DNA of 21,762 nt. It comes from a virus. Where the stretch lies: the IMG/VR virus record IMGVR_UViG_3300021963_000744, positions 1 to 21,762 of that record; one strand, written 5' to 3'. Both the position numbers and the translations under genes were made by a program. Under the pieces are notes generated by a model. That model was not told where the DNA came from. It worked only from the letters and a program-made list of their open reading frames with translations, and searched no databases. How positions within the stretch are numbered: the first letter of the stretch is position 1; the number at the start of each line of letters is the position of its first letter. Of the stretch, positions 3,872 to 16,540 are shown in pieces.

Positions 3872-3920
3872 ACCAACTCTTTGCAAGATAAATACTTTGC
3901 CTGGTTTGTGTGGTAACTTC
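3870..3920 (-). pseudogene. possible displaced C-terminal remnant of the 4436-5338 gene
   Basis: In the minus direction this segment is open and reads EVTTQTRQSIYLAKSW, then TAA, with the TAA directly against copy 5 of the element. At copies 1 and 3 the upstream gene's TAA sits in the same position. By analogy this should be the end of the gene upstream of copy 5, but that gene now stops at 4436, on the far side of the HNH endonuclease. I infer that the endonuclease cassette inserted before these last codons. No homolog comparison was possible. Confidence 0.4.
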
Positions 3921-3974
3921 TCAGGTAGGGGAGATTTTAGGATTTCCCCTCATAAATAATAAAACCACACAAAC
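3904..3974 (+). promoter_or_regulatory. nested inverted repeats upstream of the HNH gene
   Basis: A perfect 11-bp inverted repeat (GTTTGTGTGGT at 3904-3914 and ACCACACAAAC at 3964-3974) encloses a second hairpin (AGGGGA at 3927-3932 with TCCCCT at 3945-3950). The 3' outer arm ends seven bases before the ATG at 3982, so in a long read-through RNA it could mask the initiation region. The late-promoter octamer at 3951-3958 lies inside, and RNA started there lacks the 5' arm. The same design occurs upstream of the GIY-YIG gene. Confidence 0.75.
3951..3958 (+). promoter_or_regulatory. T4-type late promoter octamer for the HNH gene
   Basis: The plus strand reads CATAAATA, seven of eight bases of the T4 late consensus TATAAATA, 23 bases before the ATG at 3982. 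It is the expected promoter for this lone plus-strand gene. A second, weaker candidate (GATAAATA at 3887-3894) lies outside the hairpin. Confidence 0.6.
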
Positions 3975-3981
3975 AGAGCAG

Positions 3982-4464
3982 ATGAAAGAACATCCTACCC
4001 ATAAGGGTTACTTTATCACGGAAGATGGTAGAGTATTTAATTGTAACAAATTGATGGGCAAATCAAGTGGAGGAACTTATAGTGTTGTTGACTATAAAAA
4101 TCCAAAAGAGTTGCAAGGTTATGATCTAAATGGTTATCGGTTCTTTTCTATAAAGAATAGATCAGTTGGAGGATACAGATTAGTTGCTGAAACTTACATT
4201 CCAAATCCAAATAACTTGGAAGAAGTTAATCACATTGATAGAAACAAAAGTAATAATCACGCAAGCAACTTAGAGTGGATTACTAAGAAAGATAACTTAG
4301 CAGATGCTCACGCAAAAACATACAAATTAAAAAATCCTAATGGTGAAATAATAATAGTTACGAATTTGAGAAGATGGTGTAAAGAAAACTCAATTCACGA
4401 AAGTCATTTATGGGGAAGAGGTAAAAGTAAAGGATTTACACTGATTGAAACCTTCCAGAGTTAA
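3982..4464 (+). CDS. HNH homing endonuclease (160 aa)
   Basis: This is a free-standing homing endonuclease, expected to cut a specific site in related phage DNA and promote its own spread. The N-terminus (KGYFITEDGRVFNCNKL) resembles a NUMOD4-like segment. The HNH core is at about residues 82-99 (VNHIDRNKSNN, then NLEW), with the catalytic His as H84 and the paired Asn at about N92/N96. The C-terminal tail (NLRRWCKENSIHESHLWGRG) looks like the small helical DNA-binding module common in phage endonucleases. I chose ATG 3982 over an in-frame GTG at 3910 because the promoter and hairpin lie between them. It is the only plus-strand gene and overlaps the convergent gene at 4436-5338 by 29 bases. 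Confidence 0.9.
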   Translation: MKEHPTHKGYFITEDGRVFNCNKLMGKSSGGTYSVVDYKNPKELQGYDLNGYRFFSIKNRSVGGYRLVAETYIPNPNNLEEVNHIDRNKSNNHASNLEWITKKDNLADAHAKTYKLKNPNGEIIIVTNLRRWCKENSIHESHLWGRGKSKGFTLIETFQS

Positions 4465-7618: not shown

Positions 7619-7626
7619 TATTTAGT
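7619..7626 (-). promoter_or_regulatory. weak late-promoter-like octamer upstream of the basic head-type protein
   Basis: The minus strand reads ACTAAATA, six of eight bases of TATAAATA, about 25 bases before the ATG at 7594, a spacing like that of the other late promoters here. A late promoter would suit a head protein, but the match is weak. Confidence 0.35.
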
Positions 7627-8303
7627 CAAGAGATGTGGTCCAGTTTCTCAACCGCCACGATGTCTTTATGTTTTTTTCTTTTTCCTTTTTCAATTAGATA
7701 AAGTTTATTGTAGTCATAGTTATTATCTCTTGCCCAAATTACAAGTCCACACTTTACAATTTGTGTACCGTCACTAAATGTTATTTTCCAAGTGTATGCT
7801 TGATGATGATTTTTTCCAAATCTAACTGGTGGTTTTATATTTTTTAAGCGTTCCATTTGTTTTTTTCTATAATCAGGATTTTCCCAATTTTTTTTAGTTT
7901 GTATTGATATTTGTTTTTTGCGATTATCATTGAGTTTTTTCCCTCGGAATGCTTTACCAATATTTTCTCTATGCTCATCACTAAAAATTATCCCTTTTCT
8001 TGCCCTACTTATTTTTTTCTTTGTGATTTCGCTCATATTTTTAACACCATCTCCACCATCAGTTTTATTTCTTAAAATACCAGTTCCTAAATCTTTTCTA
8101 CCAAACACAGCAATCATATAGATTTCGTGATTAAATGCTTCTTGTTCTGTTAGGTTATTTTTGAGAAATATAATTCTAGATTTATCTTTCGGTGGTTTTA
8201 TTTCATTCTTTGCTTTTTTATAAGCACGATTTCCTTCCCCCTTTCCAATGTAGTAAGGAGTTCCATCTTCACGCAAATAAGCGTAAGTGTAATAGTTATT
8301 CAT
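7626..8303 (-). CDS. GIY-YIG homing endonuclease (225 aa)
   Basis: The GIY-YIG nuclease fold covers about residues 4-80: YTYAYL (5-10) stands for GIY, YYIG is at 17-20, the conserved Arg is R26, and the catalytic Glu is probably E60 in HEIYMIAVFG. NUMOD3-like DNA-binding repeats follow (ITKKKISRARKG, then HRENIGKAFRGKK), then a linker and a C-terminal helical module (LVIWARDNNYDYNKLY). This is the architecture of T4 Seg-type free-standing endonucleases. The gene is strikingly A+T-rich compared with its neighbours, a sign of transfer. It carries its own terminator, hairpin and late promoter upstream. Confidence 0.92.
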   Translation of the reverse strand: MNNYYTYAYLREDGTPYYIGKGEGNRAYKKAKNEIKPPKDKSRIIFLKNNLTEQEAFNHEIYMIAVFGRKDLGTGILRNKTDGGDGVKNMSEITKKKISRARKGIIFSDEHRENIGKAFRGKKLNDNRKKQISIQTKKNWENPDYRKKQMERLKNIKPPVRFGKNHHQAYTWKITFSDGTQIVKCGLVIWARDNNYDYNKLYLIEKGKRKKHKDIVAVEKLDHIS

Positions 8304-10522: not shown

Positions 10523-10653
10523 TTTTGTTGTTGAATTGCTTGCTGACGATAGTATGCCTTATACATTGCATCATCACGTTGAATACAAAAGATGTTCCAA
10601 CCAATGATAGCAACAAAACCAACAAGTCCAGCAATAAAATACTTACGGTTCAT
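10519..10653 (-). CDS. tiny single-span membrane protein (44 aa)
   Basis: A short basic start (MNRKYF) precedes a span (IAGLVGFVAIIGWNIFCI) and a polar Gln-rich tail (YRQQAIQQQK). Positive-inside reasoning puts the N-terminus in the cytoplasm, opposite to the preceding entry. It is ATGA-coupled to 10650-11060 upstream. Function unknown. Confidence 0.65.
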   Translation of the reverse strand: MNRKYFIAGLVGFVAIIGWNIFCIQRDDAMYKAYYRQQAIQQQK

Positions 10654-11060
10654 ACTGCAAGTGCTCCAGCGGGGATTTCAACGACTTCAGGCAGTTTGCT
10701 ATCATCAAACTGGTGCATATTATAGCACACCCATTCACCATTGCGGAACACATAAGCATACTCTTCGCTGTTGTTAGGAAGAAGATACTCACACAGATCA
10801 GAATCGTGACGAGGAGGAGCATCTTCACCACGAGCAGAATAATACAGCGGACCTTGCTCTACCGTTTCATTATTCCAACCACAGTTAGTCCAAGGCGAAC
10901 TCATATCACCACCATCAATCAGTTCAGCAACTTTATCTTTGCTGTTGTAATGAGTGCGAAGAATACGACCCATCCATTCAGGATAACCATCCCAATGTGC
11001 ATAAGCAGACAGAATAGAACCATCTGCAAGTTCAAGACCGATGCGTGAGCGAGTTGCCAT
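10650..11060 (-). CDS. conserved phage hypothetical protein (136 aa)
   Basis: The N-terminal block MATRSRIGLELADGSILSAY, then HWDGYPEWMGRIL, and the motif ELIDGGDMSSPW are strongly recognisable as a family that recurs in cyanophages and other large phages and also occurs in bacteria, with no established function. The end (YVFRNGEWVCYNMHQFDD) is also typical. It heads the block 11060-8804, with its ATG 16 bases after the element's TATAGT. The family is recalled, not searched. Confidence 0.88.
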   Translation of the reverse strand: MATRSRIGLELADGSILSAYAHWDGYPEWMGRILRTHYNSKDKVAELIDGGDMSSPWTNCGWNNETVEQGPLYYSARGEDAPPRHDSDLCEYLLPNNSEEYAYVFRNGEWVCYNMHQFDDSKLPEVVEIPAGALAV

Positions 11061-11076
11061 TTTAGAGAGTGCTTAC

Positions 11077-11103
11077 ACTATAGGGACACTTTCAGGGGCC
11101 CAT
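11077..11103 (-). repeat. dispersed intergenic element, copy 9 (5' end altered)
   Basis: GGGCCC, CTGAAAGTGTCCC and TATAGT are intact, but the usual AACT or AATT before GGGCCC is replaced by TGAT, which is coding sequence of the truncated methylase. That gene reads into the element and stops at the element's own TGA (within CCCCTGAAAG). The divergence begins exactly at GGGCCC. Confidence 0.93.
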
Positions 11104-11502
11104 CATAAATGCTTCCAACCCCTGCGGTTTTCCAAAACTATAATCATAGGTTAATGCATCAGCACAGACATAATGAGGATGGTCTATAGAAACTCCAAGA
11201 CGTTCACACATTTCTTTATGATTGTCTCCCATTAGTTCAACTGCATACAACATCTCATTTAAGACGTGATCTTCTGTGTGATAGTTTAGAAGTTTGGTTT
11301 TGAGTGTAATCAGAAAGTTGCCATTGCCTGCGGAATTATCAAGAAAGGTGGAGTTGGGATTTTTTAGAACTTCTTCTGGAATTTCATCAATCATCTGTTG
11401 ACATAATTCTAGAGGCGTAAAAACTTCACCTGTAGAATCAATTCTTTCATCAGATCTTTCAATATCAGAACCTAAAATTTGATTATGCCTGTTCTTTTTC
11501 AC
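11092..11502 (-). CDS. truncated N6-adenine methylase fragment with SAM-binding motif (136 aa)
   Basis: The start at 11502 is GTG, overlapping the preceding gene by 20 bases. GEVFTP at 25-30 and FLDNSAGNGNFL at 53-64 match the N-terminal signature and motif I (DPACGSGNFL type) of HsdM/Eco57I-like amino-methyltransferases. YAVELMGDN is likely motif II and VCADALTYDYS motif III. The NPPY motif IV that should follow is absent: the protein ends AFMMGP, with the last residues and TGA encoded by a dispersed element. It is therefore a 3'-truncated gene, or one half of a split enzyme together with 11483-12496. Confidence 0.8.
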   Translation of the reverse strand: MKKNRHNQILGSDIERSDERIDSTGEVFTPLELCQQMIDEIPEEVLKNPNSTFLDNSAGNGNFLITLKTKLLNYHTEDHVLNEMLYAVELMGDNHKEMCERLGVSIDHPHYVCADALTYDYSFGKPQGLEAFMMGP

Positions 11503-12496
11503 AGTTGGGATTAAATGGAGATGGAATCTTTTTGAACAAATCTTTGGTGGGATGAAAAGAAGTCATATTCATCTTAACGATTTTTTTAACCTCATCGGAC
11601 ATAAGGTAATCTCTGAGAATAACTGCTTCCTCGTTGGTATTAGTTTTTAGAAACACAACGCTGAAAGTAACAGATGCTTCATAGGGTTTGATCATAATTT
11701 TACCCAATCCACCCCATTCTGCTGCCATATTCATAATGACACCGTGTTGATTGCGACCAGTTTCTTCTAAACCAGGTTCAATGTACCTAATTTTTGGCGT
11801 TTCTTCAGATCCAAGAATTTCAACAACAGGAACTCCGCCAGAATAATCTTTAATTGCATTTCTATACAGATTTCCGTTAAAGTACATATGCGCCATATTA
11901 TTAGGAACTTCTTCAATAAAATCAGGATTGTCTAATTTTACCAAGTCTTTTTCTGTCAAATTTTTTTCAATAACTGTACCATCCTTGTATGTAATTTTAC
12001 AAGGACCTTTATAATTTCTATCCCAGGTTACAATACAAGTTTGTGTATTTTGAATAGTTGGAAAAGTTTCTGCAGAAAGATATTTAATTGAAACTAGGTT
12101 GTTAGAACTAAACAGTTTTTTTCTAAAGTTAGAAGAGGGTTTCATAAAATGCTTTGCTCTAATAATTAGAGAAACCCTGTCAGATATTTCCATACTCCGT
12201 TTAAAGAAGTCAGAATCCAAATTGTTAGAGCAACCACCCGTATTAGCACCACTAACTTTAGAGCGATCAGAGTAAGGAGGATTTCCAACAGTAACAAATC
12301 GCATATTTTTATCTACAATATTTTTATTTTCAAGTTCTTGAAAGTCTGTGATGATATTTATTTTAGCATCAATCTGATTGATTGTATAGATGTGCCTAGG
12401 GTCATTTTCCCAAACCCAGATGTTTTCGGGAGAATATTTTTTAAGAGCACTCATAGAATGAGTTCCCTTAGGGTCGCCAACAATCACAAGATTCAT
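11483..12496 (-). CDS. Eco57I-like DNA methylase/specificity protein with NPPY motif (337 aa)
   Basis: The segment VTVGNPPYSD (NPPY at 72-75) is motif IV of N6-adenine or N4-cytosine DNA methyltransferases. Ahead of it, LVIVGDPKGTHS (3-14) and WVWENDPRHI (27-36) may be degenerate motifs I and II. After it, VSLIIRAKHFM and the C-terminal region (GNLYRNAIKDYSGGVPVVEI, then EEAVILRDYLMSDEVKKIV) resemble the target-recognition part of Eco57I/type ISP-like enzymes. It is ATGA-coupled to the helicase at 12493-14619 and precedes the SAM-motif fragment at 11092-11502. Whether it is active alone or needs that fragment is unresolved. The segment looks more A+T-rich than the flanks. Confidence 0.82.
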   Translation of the reverse strand: MNLVIVGDPKGTHSMSALKKYSPENIWVWENDPRHIYTINQIDAKINIITDFQELENKNIVDKNMRFVTVGNPPYSDRSKVSGANTGGCSNNLDSDFFKRSMEISDRVSLIIRAKHFMKPSSNFRKKLFSSNNLVSIKYLSAETFPTIQNTQTCIVTWDRNYKGPCKITYKDGTVIEKNLTEKDLVKLDNPDFIEEVPNNMAHMYFNGNLYRNAIKDYSGGVPVVEILGSEETPKIRYIEPGLEETGRNQHGVIMNMAAEWGGLGKIMIKPYEASVTFSVVFLKTNTNEEAVILRDYLMSDEVKKIVKMNMTSFHPTKDLFKKIPSPFNPNCEKEQA

Positions 12497-14619
12497 ACAT
12501 TAAGCATTTCTTCAAACAATTCTACTGGAATTCCTTGCTGTGTCTGTGCAGACCTGGACAGTTTATCAAGTGTCATAATCTTATCGTTTTGTATAGAATG
12601 TTGCACATCAACATATGCTTTACTGATTCGAGTGCTTAATGATTTGCGATTGATAATACCATAGTCCAATGCCATCCGCAAAATATTTTCATCATCAAGA
12701 GTTACTGGTTGATAATGTCCAGATTCAAGAACAGAATCGATGTTATTCATAGATTCGCCAGAATTGATAGCGTGAAAAAGAACAAGAGGAACTCTCTCTA
12801 AAATTGCTTGAATGGTTTCAATCTTTTGATAGATTTCGTCCTTAGCAGATTTTTCCAGTTCATTTACTCGTTTCTTGTTGCTTTTGCCGTTAGAGTTATT
12901 ATCATTCAGTTGAACAGATTTTGCAATGTTAGAGTTAGTCGCTGCAAGACTTAAGTTGAAATCAAATTCACGAAGTTTGCTGTAATCAAGAGAGGTAACA
13001 AGACCAGATACAAGGCGGATGGCATTGCCAACATCTGCTGCAAGAATTTCATTCACTTTTTCCACAGAAAGAGTTTCAAATCCTTGATTCCATTCACTAA
13101 TGGCAATATAATCCGTAAAATCATATTCTGCAACTTCAGGTGAAGTATCGCAAGCAGCAACAAATGTCTGCCGAAGTGATTCTAAACAACGTTGTGGGCA
13201 AAAGTCAATCACGGTCCAATCTTCATCAGAAGAACCACCACGGAAAGCAAATTGTGTCCAGAATTCAATGCTACTGCCTTCTGCACAGTTGATAATAGTA
13301 TCAATTTCAGAAGCAGTTACGCCAAGAACATTAGCGGTGCGTGTCAGAATACAAGAACCGTTAGGATTTTGTTTAATATGCGTGTTGATATCCTCCGCAT
13401 CGTTATCAGTGTCTCCAGTAACAACAAGAGGAGCAAATCGTGTGCCTTTCATATACTTACTGATAGCGTGACAGGCAGCAACAGAAGGCAACGTCATATA
13501 AAGATGCGTTGAGTCCTTCAACAGACGATGTTGGGGTCGAAGAGTACGTTGAGTTTCGAAATGATTAGTAACAAAGTCCTGAACCAAAGAAGGTTCAACA
13601 AAATTGCCTTCATCATCAACCCGAAACAGATTCTTCATTGCATCGGGGTCATCTCCGAAGAGTGATTGATACTTTTCAGAATCATATTTTGCAAGAACAA
13701 CCTTCATAGAGGGGCGATTAATTAAACCACGCTTCTTATCAAGTTGTTCTTCGTAGTAAGAATAAATGTAACGGTTTGAATTACTGAAATCCCACACCAT
13801 CTTGTATGCAGTTCCAGTTACATACAGAACCTTACAATCGCAAGAATTCTGAAGTTCAATCCACTGTTTTGAGCCATATCCAATGTGTGCTTCATCATAA
13901 ACGATAAGGTCAACATTGCAGGGAAGATTCTTAAGTTTACGACTTTGAATACAACCCCAAAGAATCAGTTGTTTATCAGTATTCAGATACTTCGCAATCT
14001 CTTGATCATAATTTTTTTTATTCAAGTCAATGAAGACCAGATTTTCAAAGTTTTTAAGATTAGAATCTTCACGCCAAGATTGTTCTGGAGACTTGTATCG
14101 GGAAACAACAAGTGTTACCTTGACACCACTTTCTACAATAGCAGTAAGTACCATCGTAGATTTACCAGCACGACACTTTGCAAACAGCAGAAATTCTTTC
14201 CACTGCTCCCAAGTTGACATAATTTTGGTGACAAACTCTTTCTGATGTTTAAAGAGTTCGCGGGTTTCTGCAATTTTACTTACAGACTGAGAACCTTGAT
14301 ACTGTTCTAGTTCATATGCAGCATCTTCTACAGTGATATAAAACCATTCACGGTCTTTATCATCACGGGTTTTCTTGTAACCACTTTTCAAAAGATATTT
14401 GTGAAACTCTTTATCACCAAAAGTGGTTTCAAATACTCCTTTGGTGATAAGTTGCTGAGGATTAGAAGTTGTATCTTGCTGATTGATACGTTCTTCTGCT
14501 TCTTCTTGTTGCGTGTCTCCAATCTTAAGCATTGGGATACGACCAAGTTCAACTTGGTCCTCGTAATGTGCTTGAGTGGAATAGAAGTATATTTTCTTTT
14601 TGATGGTTTCCATAACCAT
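12493..14619 (-). CDS. GIY-YIG/T5orf172-like domain fused to SF2 helicase, restriction-enzyme-like (708 aa)
   Basis: The start at 14619 (MVMETIKKKIYFYSTQ) replaces an upstream start at 14667 whose extra residues translate the dispersed element. Residues about 8-95 fit the T5orf172/GIY-YIG pattern: IYFYS, MLKIGDT (30-36), R44, the likely catalytic Glu in DKEFHKYL (E71), and EWFY (91-94). A helicase follows: Walker A-like CRAGKST (149-155), DEAH at 242-245, TGTA at 268-271, and a motif VI-like stretch (FWTQFAFRGG). The fusion, plus the adjacent methylase genes, suggests a type I/III- or ISP-like restriction or DNA-processing subunit. It could instead be a phage helicase with an accessory domain. 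Confidence 0.88.
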   Translation of the reverse strand: MVMETIKKKIYFYSTQAHYEDQVELGRIPMLKIGDTQQEEAEERINQQDTTSNPQQLITKGVFETTFGDKEFHKYLLKSGYKKTRDDKDREWFYITVEDAAYELEQYQGSQSVSKIAETRELFKHQKEFVTKIMSTWEQWKEFLLFAKCRAGKSTMVLTAIVESGVKVTLVVSRYKSPEQSWREDSNLKNFENLVFIDLNKKNYDQEIAKYLNTDKQLILWGCIQSRKLKNLPCNVDLIVYDEAHIGYGSKQWIELQNSCDCKVLYVTGTAYKMVWDFSNSNRYIYSYYEEQLDKKRGLINRPSMKVVLAKYDSEKYQSLFGDDPDAMKNLFRVDDEGNFVEPSLVQDFVTNHFETQRTLRPQHRLLKDSTHLYMTLPSVAACHAISKYMKGTRFAPLVVTGDTDNDAEDINTHIKQNPNGSCILTRTANVLGVTASEIDTIINCAEGSSIEFWTQFAFRGGSSDEDWTVIDFCPQRCLESLRQTFVAACDTSPEVAEYDFTDYIAISEWNQGFETLSVEKVNEILAADVGNAIRLVSGLVTSLDYSKLREFDFNLSLAATNSNIAKSVQLNDNNSNGKSNKKRVNELEKSAKDEIYQKIETIQAILERVPLVLFHAINSGESMNNIDSVLESGHYQPVTLDDENILRMALDYGIINRKSLSTRISKAYVDVQHSIQNDKIMTLDKLSRSAQTQQGIPVELFEEMLNV

Positions 14620-14634
14620 TTTGGAGCGATTATG

Positions 14635-14662
14635 TAATAGGAACACTTTTAGGGGCCCAATT
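14635..14662 (-). repeat. dispersed intergenic element, copy 10 (degenerate)
   Basis: This is the most diverged copy: AATTGGGCCC, CTAAAAGTGTTCC, TATTAC. It lies between the secreted protein (whose TAA overlaps it at 14661) and the helicase fusion gene, and marks the right-hand limit of the element in the window. The CCC-to-TCC change still allows a G-U pair with GGG. Confidence 0.88.
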
Positions 14663-15134
14663 AGCAACTATAGAGCAATGCACCAAGACCAGCACCAAAA
14701 AGTGTCCAACCATTACTATTTGTACCATAGTTATTCCAACCACCAGAATAACTACCACGATTATAGTTTCGATAATAACTTCCACCATAATTGTAACTAT
14801 TACCAGTCAGAGCAGATGCGAGACCAGCACCCAATGCAGCCCCAGCAGTGGGATTACAAATCCTCTGACGATAACGTGGTTGTTCAATAGGAACTGCAAC
14901 AGGAGATTGATACACATTACCGTCATTCGGACGATAATAAGTTCCAGTTCCGCACTGAACATTGTACCGTTGAGTTCTCACACTCCCAGAAATATAATTT
15001 CCACTTCTATCATAATATCCAGGTATGTAGTTTTCCTGAATATTGGTACAAACAGAATAGATGTTAGTTTGCTGTGCAAATGCAGGGATAGGTGCTGCAA
15101 GAACTGATGCAAGCAAAACTGCCTTAAGTTTCAT
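14661..15134 (-). CDS. secreted glycine-rich protein with signal peptide (157 aa)
   Basis: The start at 15134 (MKLKAVLLASVLAAPIPAFA, then QQ) gives a classic Sec signal peptide with cleavage after AFA; an upstream start at 15188 lies before the promoter and is excluded. The mature part is Tyr/Asn/Gly-rich, with a glycine-zipper-like segment at about residues 102-114 (AGAALGAGLASALTG) and a second near the end (LFGAGLGALLYSC). There are four to five Cys residues. This looks like a periplasmic or outer-membrane protein, unusual in a phage, and may be host-derived. A role in superinfection exclusion is only a guess. It has its own early promoter. Confidence 0.8.
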   Translation of the reverse strand: MKLKAVLLASVLAAPIPAFAQQTNIYSVCTNIQENYIPGYYDRSGNYISGSVRTQRYNVQCGTGTYYRPNDGNVYQSPVAVPIEQPRYRQRICNPTAGAALGAGLASALTGNSYNYGGSYYRNYNRGSYSGGWNNYGTNSNGWTLFGAGLGALLYSC

Positions 15135-15689: not shown

Positions 15690-15912
15690 TTTTAAGTAAA
15701 TTGTGATAATAAAGGACTTCAGGATTTTCTAGATCTTTACATCTAGGATAGAAGATGCCGTCACGATAACACGCAGCTTCTGGATTTGGTTTAGCATATT
15801 GTAGCACAGAAGCGCGTGGTTGTCTAAAGTTGCAAAGTTCTCCTTGTTTGGTCATAAAGTTTTCAAAACACAGACCAGCAACAAAAGGAGCAAGGAACTG
15901 AAGTGTATACAT
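15652..15912 (-). CDS. hypothetical protein with hydrophobic N-terminus (86 aa)
   Basis: The ATG at 15912 shares TGATG with the preceding stop. The N-terminus (MYTLQFLAPFVAGLCFENFM) is hydrophobic, and the rest has three more Cys (LCNF, ACYR, RCKD), suggesting an exported, disulfide-bonded small protein or one anchored by its N-terminus. No cleavage site is clear. Function unknown. Confidence 0.7.
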   Translation of the reverse strand: MYTLQFLAPFVAGLCFENFMTKQGELCNFRQPRASVLQYAKPNPEAACYRDGIFYPRCKDLENPEVLYYHNLLKNGTVTTNPRTSP

Positions 15913-16412
15913 CAAACTTTACGCAACAGATAAGAACCATCACCTTGTTCAACCCATTCAACAGTATCACCTTCTTTAAGGTTTGCTGCCTCTAACAAAT
16001 CATCAGGGAACTGAACATAACATTCACCAGACAAACTATCAAGTTGGACAGGAAGTTGCCACCTTACAACTTTATCCTCTTGGGGAAGTGGTGTCCACTC
16101 ATATCCTTTTTCTTCAAGGGATTGTCTTACTTCATCATCAACACCTTCCCAGAAATCATTCCAGGCACCCTTACATTCTGGAGATGGGTCATCTTTATCG
16201 CAAGAAAGCATAGATTTATCTGCAACAGGACGATGCCCACTTAAAAGTTCAAGAAGTCCATAAGCACGACTTACTTGTTCTCGGTGATAATTATAATTTT
16301 CACGAACTGCTTCACGAATAGTTGAATAGATTTCGTGAGGTGATGCATCACTACTCATAGCATCGTGCATCCACTCTTCAAGTTTTTCAAGCGAATACTT
16401 CTTGTAGTCCAT
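15912..16412 (-). CDS. protein with C-terminal AbrB/SpoVT-like fold (166 aa)
   Basis: The start at 16412 (MDYKKYSLEKLEEWMHDAMS) is preferred to one at 16445 that lies inside the zinc-ribbon gene. The helical N-terminal domain (residues 1-60) resembles a conserved cyanophage family. The C-terminal 45 residues (YVQFPDDLLEAANLKEGDTV, then EWVEQGDGSYLLRKV) show the swapped-hairpin pattern of AbrB-like DNA-binding domains: a strand with FPDDLL, KEGDTVEW, and a closing strand. A transcriptional or toxin-antitoxin-type regulator is possible, but in cyanophages the family is hypothetical. Confidence 0.8.
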   Translation of the reverse strand: MDYKKYSLEKLEEWMHDAMSSDASPHEIYSTIREAVRENYNYHREQVSRAYGLLELLSGHRPVADKSMLSCDKDDPSPECKGAWNDFWEGVDDEVRQSLEEKGYEWTPLPQEDKVVRWQLPVQLDSLSGECYVQFPDDLLEAANLKEGDTVEWVEQGDGSYLLRKV

Positions 16413-16414
16413 AA

Positions 16415-16540
16415 TCAGTCTTCTCTGGGTTTGGGTTTGTTGCACTCATTGCAGTAGAAAGACAACCCACTGCGAAAGTATTTTACACGCTGGTAGTGTT
16501 GTTCGTCAAGTGGTTTGGTTTCACCACATTTACTACATAT
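16415..16540 (-). CDS. zinc-ribbon protein lacking a standard start codon (41 aa visible)
   Basis: From 16540 the frame reads ICSKCGETKPLDEQHYQR, then FYCNECNKPKPRED: two CxxC knuckles 25-26 residues apart, typical of a small zinc ribbon. The codon where a Met would be expected is ATA. The nearest in-frame ATG is 162 bases upstream at 16702, inside the 57-aa gene in another frame, and the residues in between look like shadow translation. Initiation at ATA, a mutated start, or a frameshift in the six-A run are the options. It overlaps the stop of the 57-aa gene. Confidence 0.55.
   Translation of the reverse strand: MCSKCGETKPLDEQHYQRVKYFRSGLSFYCNECNKPKPRED

What the first reader, a model, noticed from the sequence alone, without database searches (positions are those of the whole stretch)
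11092..14619. Phage-borne restriction-modification-like cassette with a GIY-YIG-helicase fusion
Three coupled minus-strand genes encode (i) a 708-aa protein with an N-terminal T5orf172/GIY-YIG-like domain (KIGDT, R44, E71, EWF) and a DEAH helicase, (ii) a 337-aa protein with NPPY and an Eco57I-like C-terminus, and (iii) a 136-aa fragment with GEVFTP and the SAM motif DNSAGNGNFL. Nuclease, translocase and methylase in one operon, preceded by a degenerate element and a secreted protein, suggest a system acting on competing phage or host DNA, or a captured defence island. The fusion in a T4-like phage is unusual as far as I know.
Basis: partly seen in the sequence, partly recalled or inferred. 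Interest (0 to 1): 0.75.

Follow-up and report, generated by a model that had tools for sequence, protein, structure and literature searches.

The report
Phage restriction system with split methylase
A marine cyanobacterial phage carries a compact restriction-modification set whose DNA-methylating enzyme appears to be built from two separate proteins, a constant cofactor-binding piece and an exchangeable DNA-recognising piece, and related phages swap the second piece together with its nuclease as a cassette.

Summary
The three minus-strand genes are real, intact and conserved: a T5orf172/GIY-YIG plus ResIII-helicase protein (708 aa), a motif IV (NPPY) protein (337 aa) and a SAM-motif protein (136 aa). 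The 136-aa gene is not a fragment. In cyanophages it is a constant gene ("mI", motif I intact in 146/146). Next to it lies a motif IV protein whose own motif I is degenerate (69 of 70) or which lacks a SAM domain (20 more). The same catalytic/recognition half is joined to several unrelated N-halves or to none. An N-half is present when a nuclease/helicase is (67/67 informative) and absent when it is not (0/20). Aeromonas phage PX29 carries both halves in one permuted chain (AF2 pTM 0.76). Actinobacteria and Firmicutes carry an operon homologous to all three genes, with the same split point at Met65. Isolates of one phage species keep mI but carry unrelated cassettes. Best reading: a translocating restriction system with a split gamma-type adenine methylase whose SAM subunit is constant and whose specificity/restriction module is exchangeable. 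R-M in cyanophages was already annotated; the split, plug-in architecture appears undescribed in what I could search. No bench evidence exists.

The parts
12493..14619 (-). 708-aa restriction protein: N-terminal T5orf172/GIY-YIG-like nuclease (about residues 1-105, window 14619-14305), ResIII/DEAH helicase-translocase (about 120-480, window 14262-13180), helical C-terminal part (by inference a coupler)
   Evidence: Pfam T5orf172 and ResIII above cut-off; phrog_22930 1e-223; relatives; single-comparison BLASTP to bacterial operon proteins across nuclease and helicase
12305..12496 (-). N-half of the 337-aa protein (residues 1-64): Rossmann-like GDPKGTHS..WENDPRHIY segment with degenerate motif I; a kind of domain found with nuclease/helicase genes, proposed adapter to the restriction module
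   Evidence: motif comparison across partners; association with restriction genes
11483..12304 (-). catalytic plus target-recognition half of the 337-aa protein (residues 65-337, from Met65): motif IV NPPY then variable recognition region
   Evidence: Eco57I Pfam; same half found with other N-halves or with none; bacterial gene starts at this Met
11092..11502 (-). 136-aa constant SAM-binding subunit 'mI' (GEVFTP, motif I DNSAGNGNFL, motif II YAVELMGDN)
   Evidence: phrog_4376, 302 confirmed relatives in IMG/VR, motif I intact 146/146, gamma-class relative CamA in PDB by sequence
11063..11111 (.). repeat element copy at the 3' edge of the cassette; it encodes the last residues and stop of mI
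   Evidence: family D1, 10 copies
14620..14668 (.). degenerate repeat element copy at the 5' edge of the cassette, immediately before the 708-aa start codon
   Evidence: family D1

Best explanation
The trio is a compact ATP-dependent restriction-modification system with a split adenine-N6 methyltransferase of the gamma (M.TaqI/CamA/HsdM) type. The 136-aa protein (mI) supplies motifs X-III and binds SAM; residues 65-337 of the 337-aa protein supply motif IV (NPPY) and target recognition; together they form the active enzyme that marks the phage's own DNA. The 708-aa protein translocates from an unmodified site and cuts with its GIY-YIG domain. The first 64 residues of the 337-aa protein, a SAM domain with degenerate motif I, link the methylase to the nuclease/helicase. 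mI stays fixed while recognition half and restriction module are exchanged between phages by recombination at mI or in flanking repeats. Likely role (inferred): destroy unmodified DNA of the host or of rival phages. Shown: gene content, motif complementarity, module swapping, natural fused form, bacterial homologues. Inferred: assembly of the halves, cleavage, biological target.
For: (1) mI has a motif IV protein beside it wherever there is enough sequence: by regex 71 of the 72 mI loci with >=1.3 kb upstream, and the 72nd (L045) carries NPPY too. Starting from the catalytic half, mI follows in 26 of 29 loci and the other three contigs end there; starting from the 708-aa protein, mI follows in nearly all, and in L100 it lies elsewhere on the contig. 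(2) Complementarity: motif I intact in 146/146 mI but canonical-looking in 1/70 N-halves; 20 partners have no SAM domain and begin at motif IV. (3) One catalytic/recognition family is joined to at least five unrelated N-halves or none. (4) N-half with restriction gene 67/67 informative, without 0/20. (5) Rosetta-stone fusion in Aeromonas phage PX29 and a rumen contig, order IV-recognition-X-I; AF2 of the PX29 chain pTM 0.76, SAM half pLDDT mostly 92-97. (6) Bacterial operon SAM-half / helicase with N-half / motif IV gene, homologous to all three. (7) S-CAM7 isolates with 96-99% identical flanks carry unrelated cassettes and homology resumes at the first base of mI; in ACG-2014f it breaks at repeats; mI is in about 26 ACG-2014f records but the 708-aa relative in only 2. 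(8) Two catalytic genes before one mI (L046, L066, L129).
Against: No biochemistry. The joined model of mI with a window-like partner (L037, read through stops with a non-native linker) gave pTM 0.49 with poor strands in mI, so docking is not shown. Foldseek of the PX29 fusion aligned only part of the chain to CamA/M.TaqI (TM about 0.2; sequential alignment, so a permuted chain can match only in pieces). The A-type N-half keeps a conserved GDPxGxHS and an acidic residue, so it could bind SAM itself. Three of 11 family members lack R44 and carry a non-acidic residue 71, so nuclease activity may be lost in some. Counts include related sequences, and the 80 mI loci are the best of 302, so they are not independent events.
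Confidence: 0.72

Rival explanations
1. The 337-aa protein is a self-sufficient methylase with a variant SAM motif (GDPxGxHS, WENDxR), and mI is a separate accessory or regulatory SAM-binding protein.
For: N-half motif conserved within A-type partners; Eco57I profile spans residues 23-141.
Against: Partners lacking any N-half still sit beside mI; other N-half types have unrelated sequences; the PX29 single chain contains the mI-like half as its only SAM half.
Confidence: 0.15
2. Modification-only or decaying system: the methylase protects phage DNA, while nuclease/helicase parts are passengers or inactive.
For: Orphan forms without nuclease exist (P-SSM2 type); some GIY-YIG domains lack catalytic residues.
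Against: Window protein keeps Y11, R44, E71 and helicase motifs; the trio recurs intact in many phages; most marine Synechococcus and Prochlorococcus are reported to lack R-M (PMC9602691), so self-protection alone has little to act on.
Confidence: 0.1
3. Homing or mobile cassette: the GIY-YIG domain serves spread of the cassette (homing) rather than restriction.
For: Flanking repeats and cassette exchange; free-standing GIY-YIG and HNH homing-type genes nearby.
Against: Linkage to helicase and methylase and homologous bacterial R-M operons; homing enzymes do not need these.
Confidence: 0.03

Closest known systems
Unnamed bacterial three-gene operon (e.g. Aerococcus kribbianus L174, Microbacterium L167, Corynebacterium L160, Enterococcus plasmids; PADLOC PDLC03375 MTase_II / PDLC03626 REase_MTase_IIG; annotated on plasmids as 'N-6 DNA methylase' and 'Eco57I restriction-modification methylase domain-containing protein')
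   Same: Free-standing SAM-half, helicase protein ending in a degenerate SAM domain, motif IV gene starting at the same Met; all three window genes have homologues there
   Different: Bacterial proteins are larger (214-248, 1093-1150, 339-351 aa); N-half sits on the helicase protein; gene order is SAM-half first (as in ACG-2014f, unlike the window)
Cyanophage genes annotated 'type II restriction-modification system restriction subunit' (S-CAM7, MA01)
   Same: Direct relatives with the same module set
   Different: In MA01-type phages helicase and motif IV protein are one 1074-aa chain; recognition halves differ
Type ISP (LlaGI, LlaBIII)
   Same: Order nuclease, SF2 helicase, coupler, gamma-methylase, recognition domain (order from the PMC4666363 abstract; gamma class from memory)
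   Different: Type ISP is one chain with an Mrr nuclease; here GIY-YIG-like, multi-gene, SAM half in trans
M.TaqI / CamA / HsdM gamma-class methylases
   Same: GEVFTP-like motif X region, motif I and NPPY; Foldseek of the joined model, mainly its catalytic half, matches M.TaqI and CamA
   Different: Motifs I-III and IV on different chains, in permuted order when fused
T5orf172 nuclease Gp88 of phage ICP1
   Same: T5orf172 domain of the GIY-YIG superfamily in a phage nuclease (PMC8263062)
   Different: No helicase or methylase

Membership tests
Restriction-modification (general) | linked nuclease, methylase and recognition functions | tested here: met
   (by homology and linkage, not by activity)
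Restriction-modification (general) | methylation blocks cleavage | not testable with these tools
   needs bench work
Type ISP | single polypeptide | tested here: not met
   three genes in the window; even fused 1040-1177 aa forms leave the SAM half separate
Type ISP | Mrr-family nuclease domain | tested here: not met
   T5orf172 instead
Type I | separate HsdS specificity subunit | tested here: not met
   no HsdS match among the cassette proteins scanned
Type III | Mod protein carrying both SAM motif and DPPY-type motif IV in one chain | tested here: not met
   motif I and NPPY on separate proteins
Gamma-class adenine methylase | motif I and NPPY with gamma-type sequence | tested here: met
   Eco57I/N6_Mtase matches, CamA by sequence, M.TaqI/CamA by fold
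Gamma-class adenine methylase | order X-I-IV-recognition in one chain | tested here: not met
   split here; order IV-recognition-X-I in fused PX29
GIY-YIG nuclease (T5orf172) | profile match and catalytic residues | tested here: met
   Pfam above cut-off; Y11, R44 and E71 present in the window protein
GIY-YIG nuclease (T5orf172) | GIY-YIG fold by structure comparison | not tested
Bacterial three-gene split system | SAM half, helicase protein and motif IV gene all homologous | tested here: met
   single-comparison E-values 1e-11, 1e-5 and 2e-14

The most novel reading that the evidence does not exclude
mI is a universal SAM-carrying subunit into which different catalytic/recognition proteins plug: a phage keeps one mI and swaps specificity and restriction modules around it, sometimes running two recognition subunits on one mI. 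The Met conserved at the domain joint (71/71 joined partners) would in addition allow internal initiation, giving a methylase-only form beside the restriction-coupled form.
Probability: 0.4. Interest if true: 0.75.

Novelty: new variant of a known kind. Interest (0 to 1): 0.62.

Why it matters
If true, it shows a DNA methyltransferase divided inside its Rossmann fold into a constant cofactor subunit and exchangeable catalytic/recognition subunits, which would let phages change specificity by swapping one cassette without rebuilding the enzyme. It provides candidate intermediates (split, pseudo-domain retained, pseudo-domain lost, permuted fusion) for the circular permutations long inferred among methylases. 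It also makes testable whether lytic cyanophages, whose hosts mostly lack restriction systems, use restriction against the host chromosome or each other.

Tried and rejected
Frame error or pseudogene: rejected, the split recurs in dozens of contigs and in cultured phages. AF2 of a joined mI plus window-like partner (L037 read through its stops, about 120-residue non-native linker): inconclusive. Alignments with many mI rows dragged partner rows into the wrong half; fixed by reducing rows after offline tests. PDB sequence search with profiles of the 708-aa and 337-aa families: no meaningful hit. Genome scan with the 708-aa profile: none confirmed, although homologues exist in the operons found with mI, so that negative reflects pattern choice. 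Shine-Dalgarno at the internal Met: 15% versus 6% at control ATGs and 17% at mI starts; only suggestive. RNA folding of the repeat element: no stable hairpin. Promoter/terminator scan near chance. Literature searches for a split adenine methylase of this kind found no description, but most subscription papers are missing from the library.

Full report
What is in the window. The window is a 21,762-base IMG/VR virus fragment from a T4-like cyanophage: it carries a UvsW-like helicase and gene families shared with cyanophages, and its nearest relatives are Kyanoviridae and similar contigs. A 236-kb IMG/VR contig carries the same trio at about 90, 85 and 69% identity. On the minus strand the order is a 708-aa protein (14619-12493), a 337-aa protein (12496-11483) and a 136-aa protein (11502-11092), overlapping by 4 and 20 bases.

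Domains. The 708-aa protein has a T5orf172 domain (GIY-YIG superfamily; for T5orf172 in a phage nuclease see PMC8263062) and a ResIII helicase, both just above the Pfam cut-offs. Its N-terminal domain is itself variable in relatives: residues Y11, G34, T36 and D69 are invariant in 11 family members, R44 is kept in 8 and position 71 is acidic in 8. The 337-aa protein matches Eco57I; the 136-aa protein carries GEVFTP, DNSAGNGNFL and ELMGDN and is a full-length member of phrog_4376.

A constant SAM half. A profile of the 136-aa protein (here mI) confirmed 302 relatives in IMG/VR, of which the best 80 were read; tblastn found it in 79 phage records, the more distant ones including Aeromonas, Klebsiella and Prevotella phages. 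Among the 72 of the 80 loci with at least 1.3 kb upstream, every one has a motif IV protein there: 71 by regular expression and L045 by inspection. Motif I is intact in 146 of 146 mI. In the motif IV proteins the segment before NPPY is either a Rossmann-like half with a degenerate motif I (only 1 of 70 keeps a canonical-looking one, L004) or is missing altogether (20 proteins). The P-SSM2-type partner begins MKFTLAIGNPPY, so if it is a methylase it must take its SAM site from elsewhere.

Modules are exchanged. A scan with the recognition family of the window found 29 loci. The same catalytic/recognition half is joined to at least five unrelated N-halves (GDPxGxHS; FDSFLILT; KEPGNGAMSD; FVWRDAHG; AKEPDPAVLEEL) or to none (L037, L145-L148), and mI follows in 26 of 26 loci where the contig continues. 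The joint lies immediately before motif IV, where a Met is present in 71 of 71 joined partners. In fused bacterial relatives Met and Val both occur there. N-halves go with restriction genes: of 67 informative N-half proteins 19 are fused to the helicase, 8 carry a GIY-YIG-like N-terminus (judged by eye) and 40 have a restriction gene adjacent, whereas 0 of 20 proteins without an N-half do. The N-half therefore looks like a coupling domain of the restriction module, not the SAM site. These counts are not phylogenetically independent.

Population evidence. Three isolates of one species (S-CAM7) share flanks at 96-99% identity but carry unrelated cassettes, and homology resumes at the first base of mI. 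In ACG-2014f, homology between isolates breaks inside roughly 70-bp intergenic repeats on either side of the cassette; mI is in about 26 records, the 708-aa relative in two. In the window a 24-nt repeat with 10 copies (0 expected) brackets the cassette. From memory, such intergenic elements resemble the PeSL mobile regulatory cassettes of T4-type phages (Arbiol et al. 2010, not held), but no stable stem was predicted here.

Physical link between the halves. Aeromonas phage PX29 and relatives encode one 415-aa chain with motif IV first and the mI-like half last; a rumen contig has a 448-aa version. AlphaFold2 of the PX29 chain gave pTM 0.76, with pLDDT 92-97 over most of the SAM half. A stand-in joined chain (L037) matched M.TaqI/CamA, mainly through its catalytic half, but did not settle docking.

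Bacterial relatives. A genome scan with a broad mI profile found about 55 bacterial loci in Actinobacteria and Firmicutes, mostly with a 214-248 aa SAM-half protein without NPPY, then a helicase protein of about 1100 aa ending in a degenerate SAM domain, then a 339-351 aa protein that starts at motif IV; in Streptococcus and several Lactococcus the last two are fused to about 1450 aa. Each window gene has its homologue there, and the bacterial motif IV gene starts exactly at window Met65. PADLOC files them as generic MTase_II and REase_MTase_IIG; Enterococcus plasmid records call two of them 'N-6 DNA methylase' and 'Eco57I restriction-modification methylase domain-containing protein'. The phage set is thus a compact, shuffled version of a bacterial restriction system that seems not to have been recognised as having a split methylase, within the literature held here.

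Function. Most likely the set methylates phage DNA and cuts unmethylated DNA after translocation. Most marine Synechococcus and Prochlorococcus are reported to lack restriction-modification (PMC9602691), so evasion of host restriction is a weak reason to keep it; attack on host DNA or on rival phages, with frequency-dependent selection for new specificities, fits the cassette exchange better. This last step is inference.

Verdict. It is a new variant of a known kind (restriction-modification), with an unusual split, plug-in methylase.

Noticed in passing
window 910, 2023, 2308, 3108, 3845, 5341, 6952, 8773, 11079, 14636 (24 nt each): Ten near-identical copies of TATAGGGACACTTTCAGGGGCCCA, between genes and in one orientation upstream of minus-strand genes; candidate promoter or recombination element of this phage.
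   Followed up: partly
L046, L066, L129: Two different motif IV/recognition genes in tandem before a single mI, as if one SAM subunit served two specificities.
   Followed up: partly
L092 (Klebsiella phage KpV477) 2493-4426: A LEM-3-like GIY-YIG domain fused to a motif IV protein, then a small ORF and an mI-like 'DNA methyltransferase': a split set in an enterobacterial T4-like phage.
   Followed up: partly
L093, L094 (Prevotella Lak phages): mI-like and motif IV genes also lie close together in Lak megaphages (read with TAG as a residue).
   Followed up: partly
L157, L160, L167, L174, L196 and about 50 more bacterial loci: Widespread bacterial operon with the methylase split between motif I and motif IV genes, filed under generic names.
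   Followed up: partly
window 10650-11060: phrog_1987 protein just downstream of mI; relatives also lie near mI in other cyanophages (e.g. S-SKS1).
   Followed up: no
window 3910-4464 (+) and 7626-8303 (-): Free-standing HNH and GIY-YIG/NUMOD3 homing-type endonuclease genes.
   Followed up: no
window 15912-16445: 177-aa protein with a MazE-like antitoxin DNA-binding segment at its C-terminus (23.4 bits, just below the 24.7 cut-off).
   Followed up: no
L153: Contig filed as a Rhodobacteraceae MAG carries a cyanophage-type mI (71% identity) and helicase; probably phage sequence binned in error.
   Followed up: no
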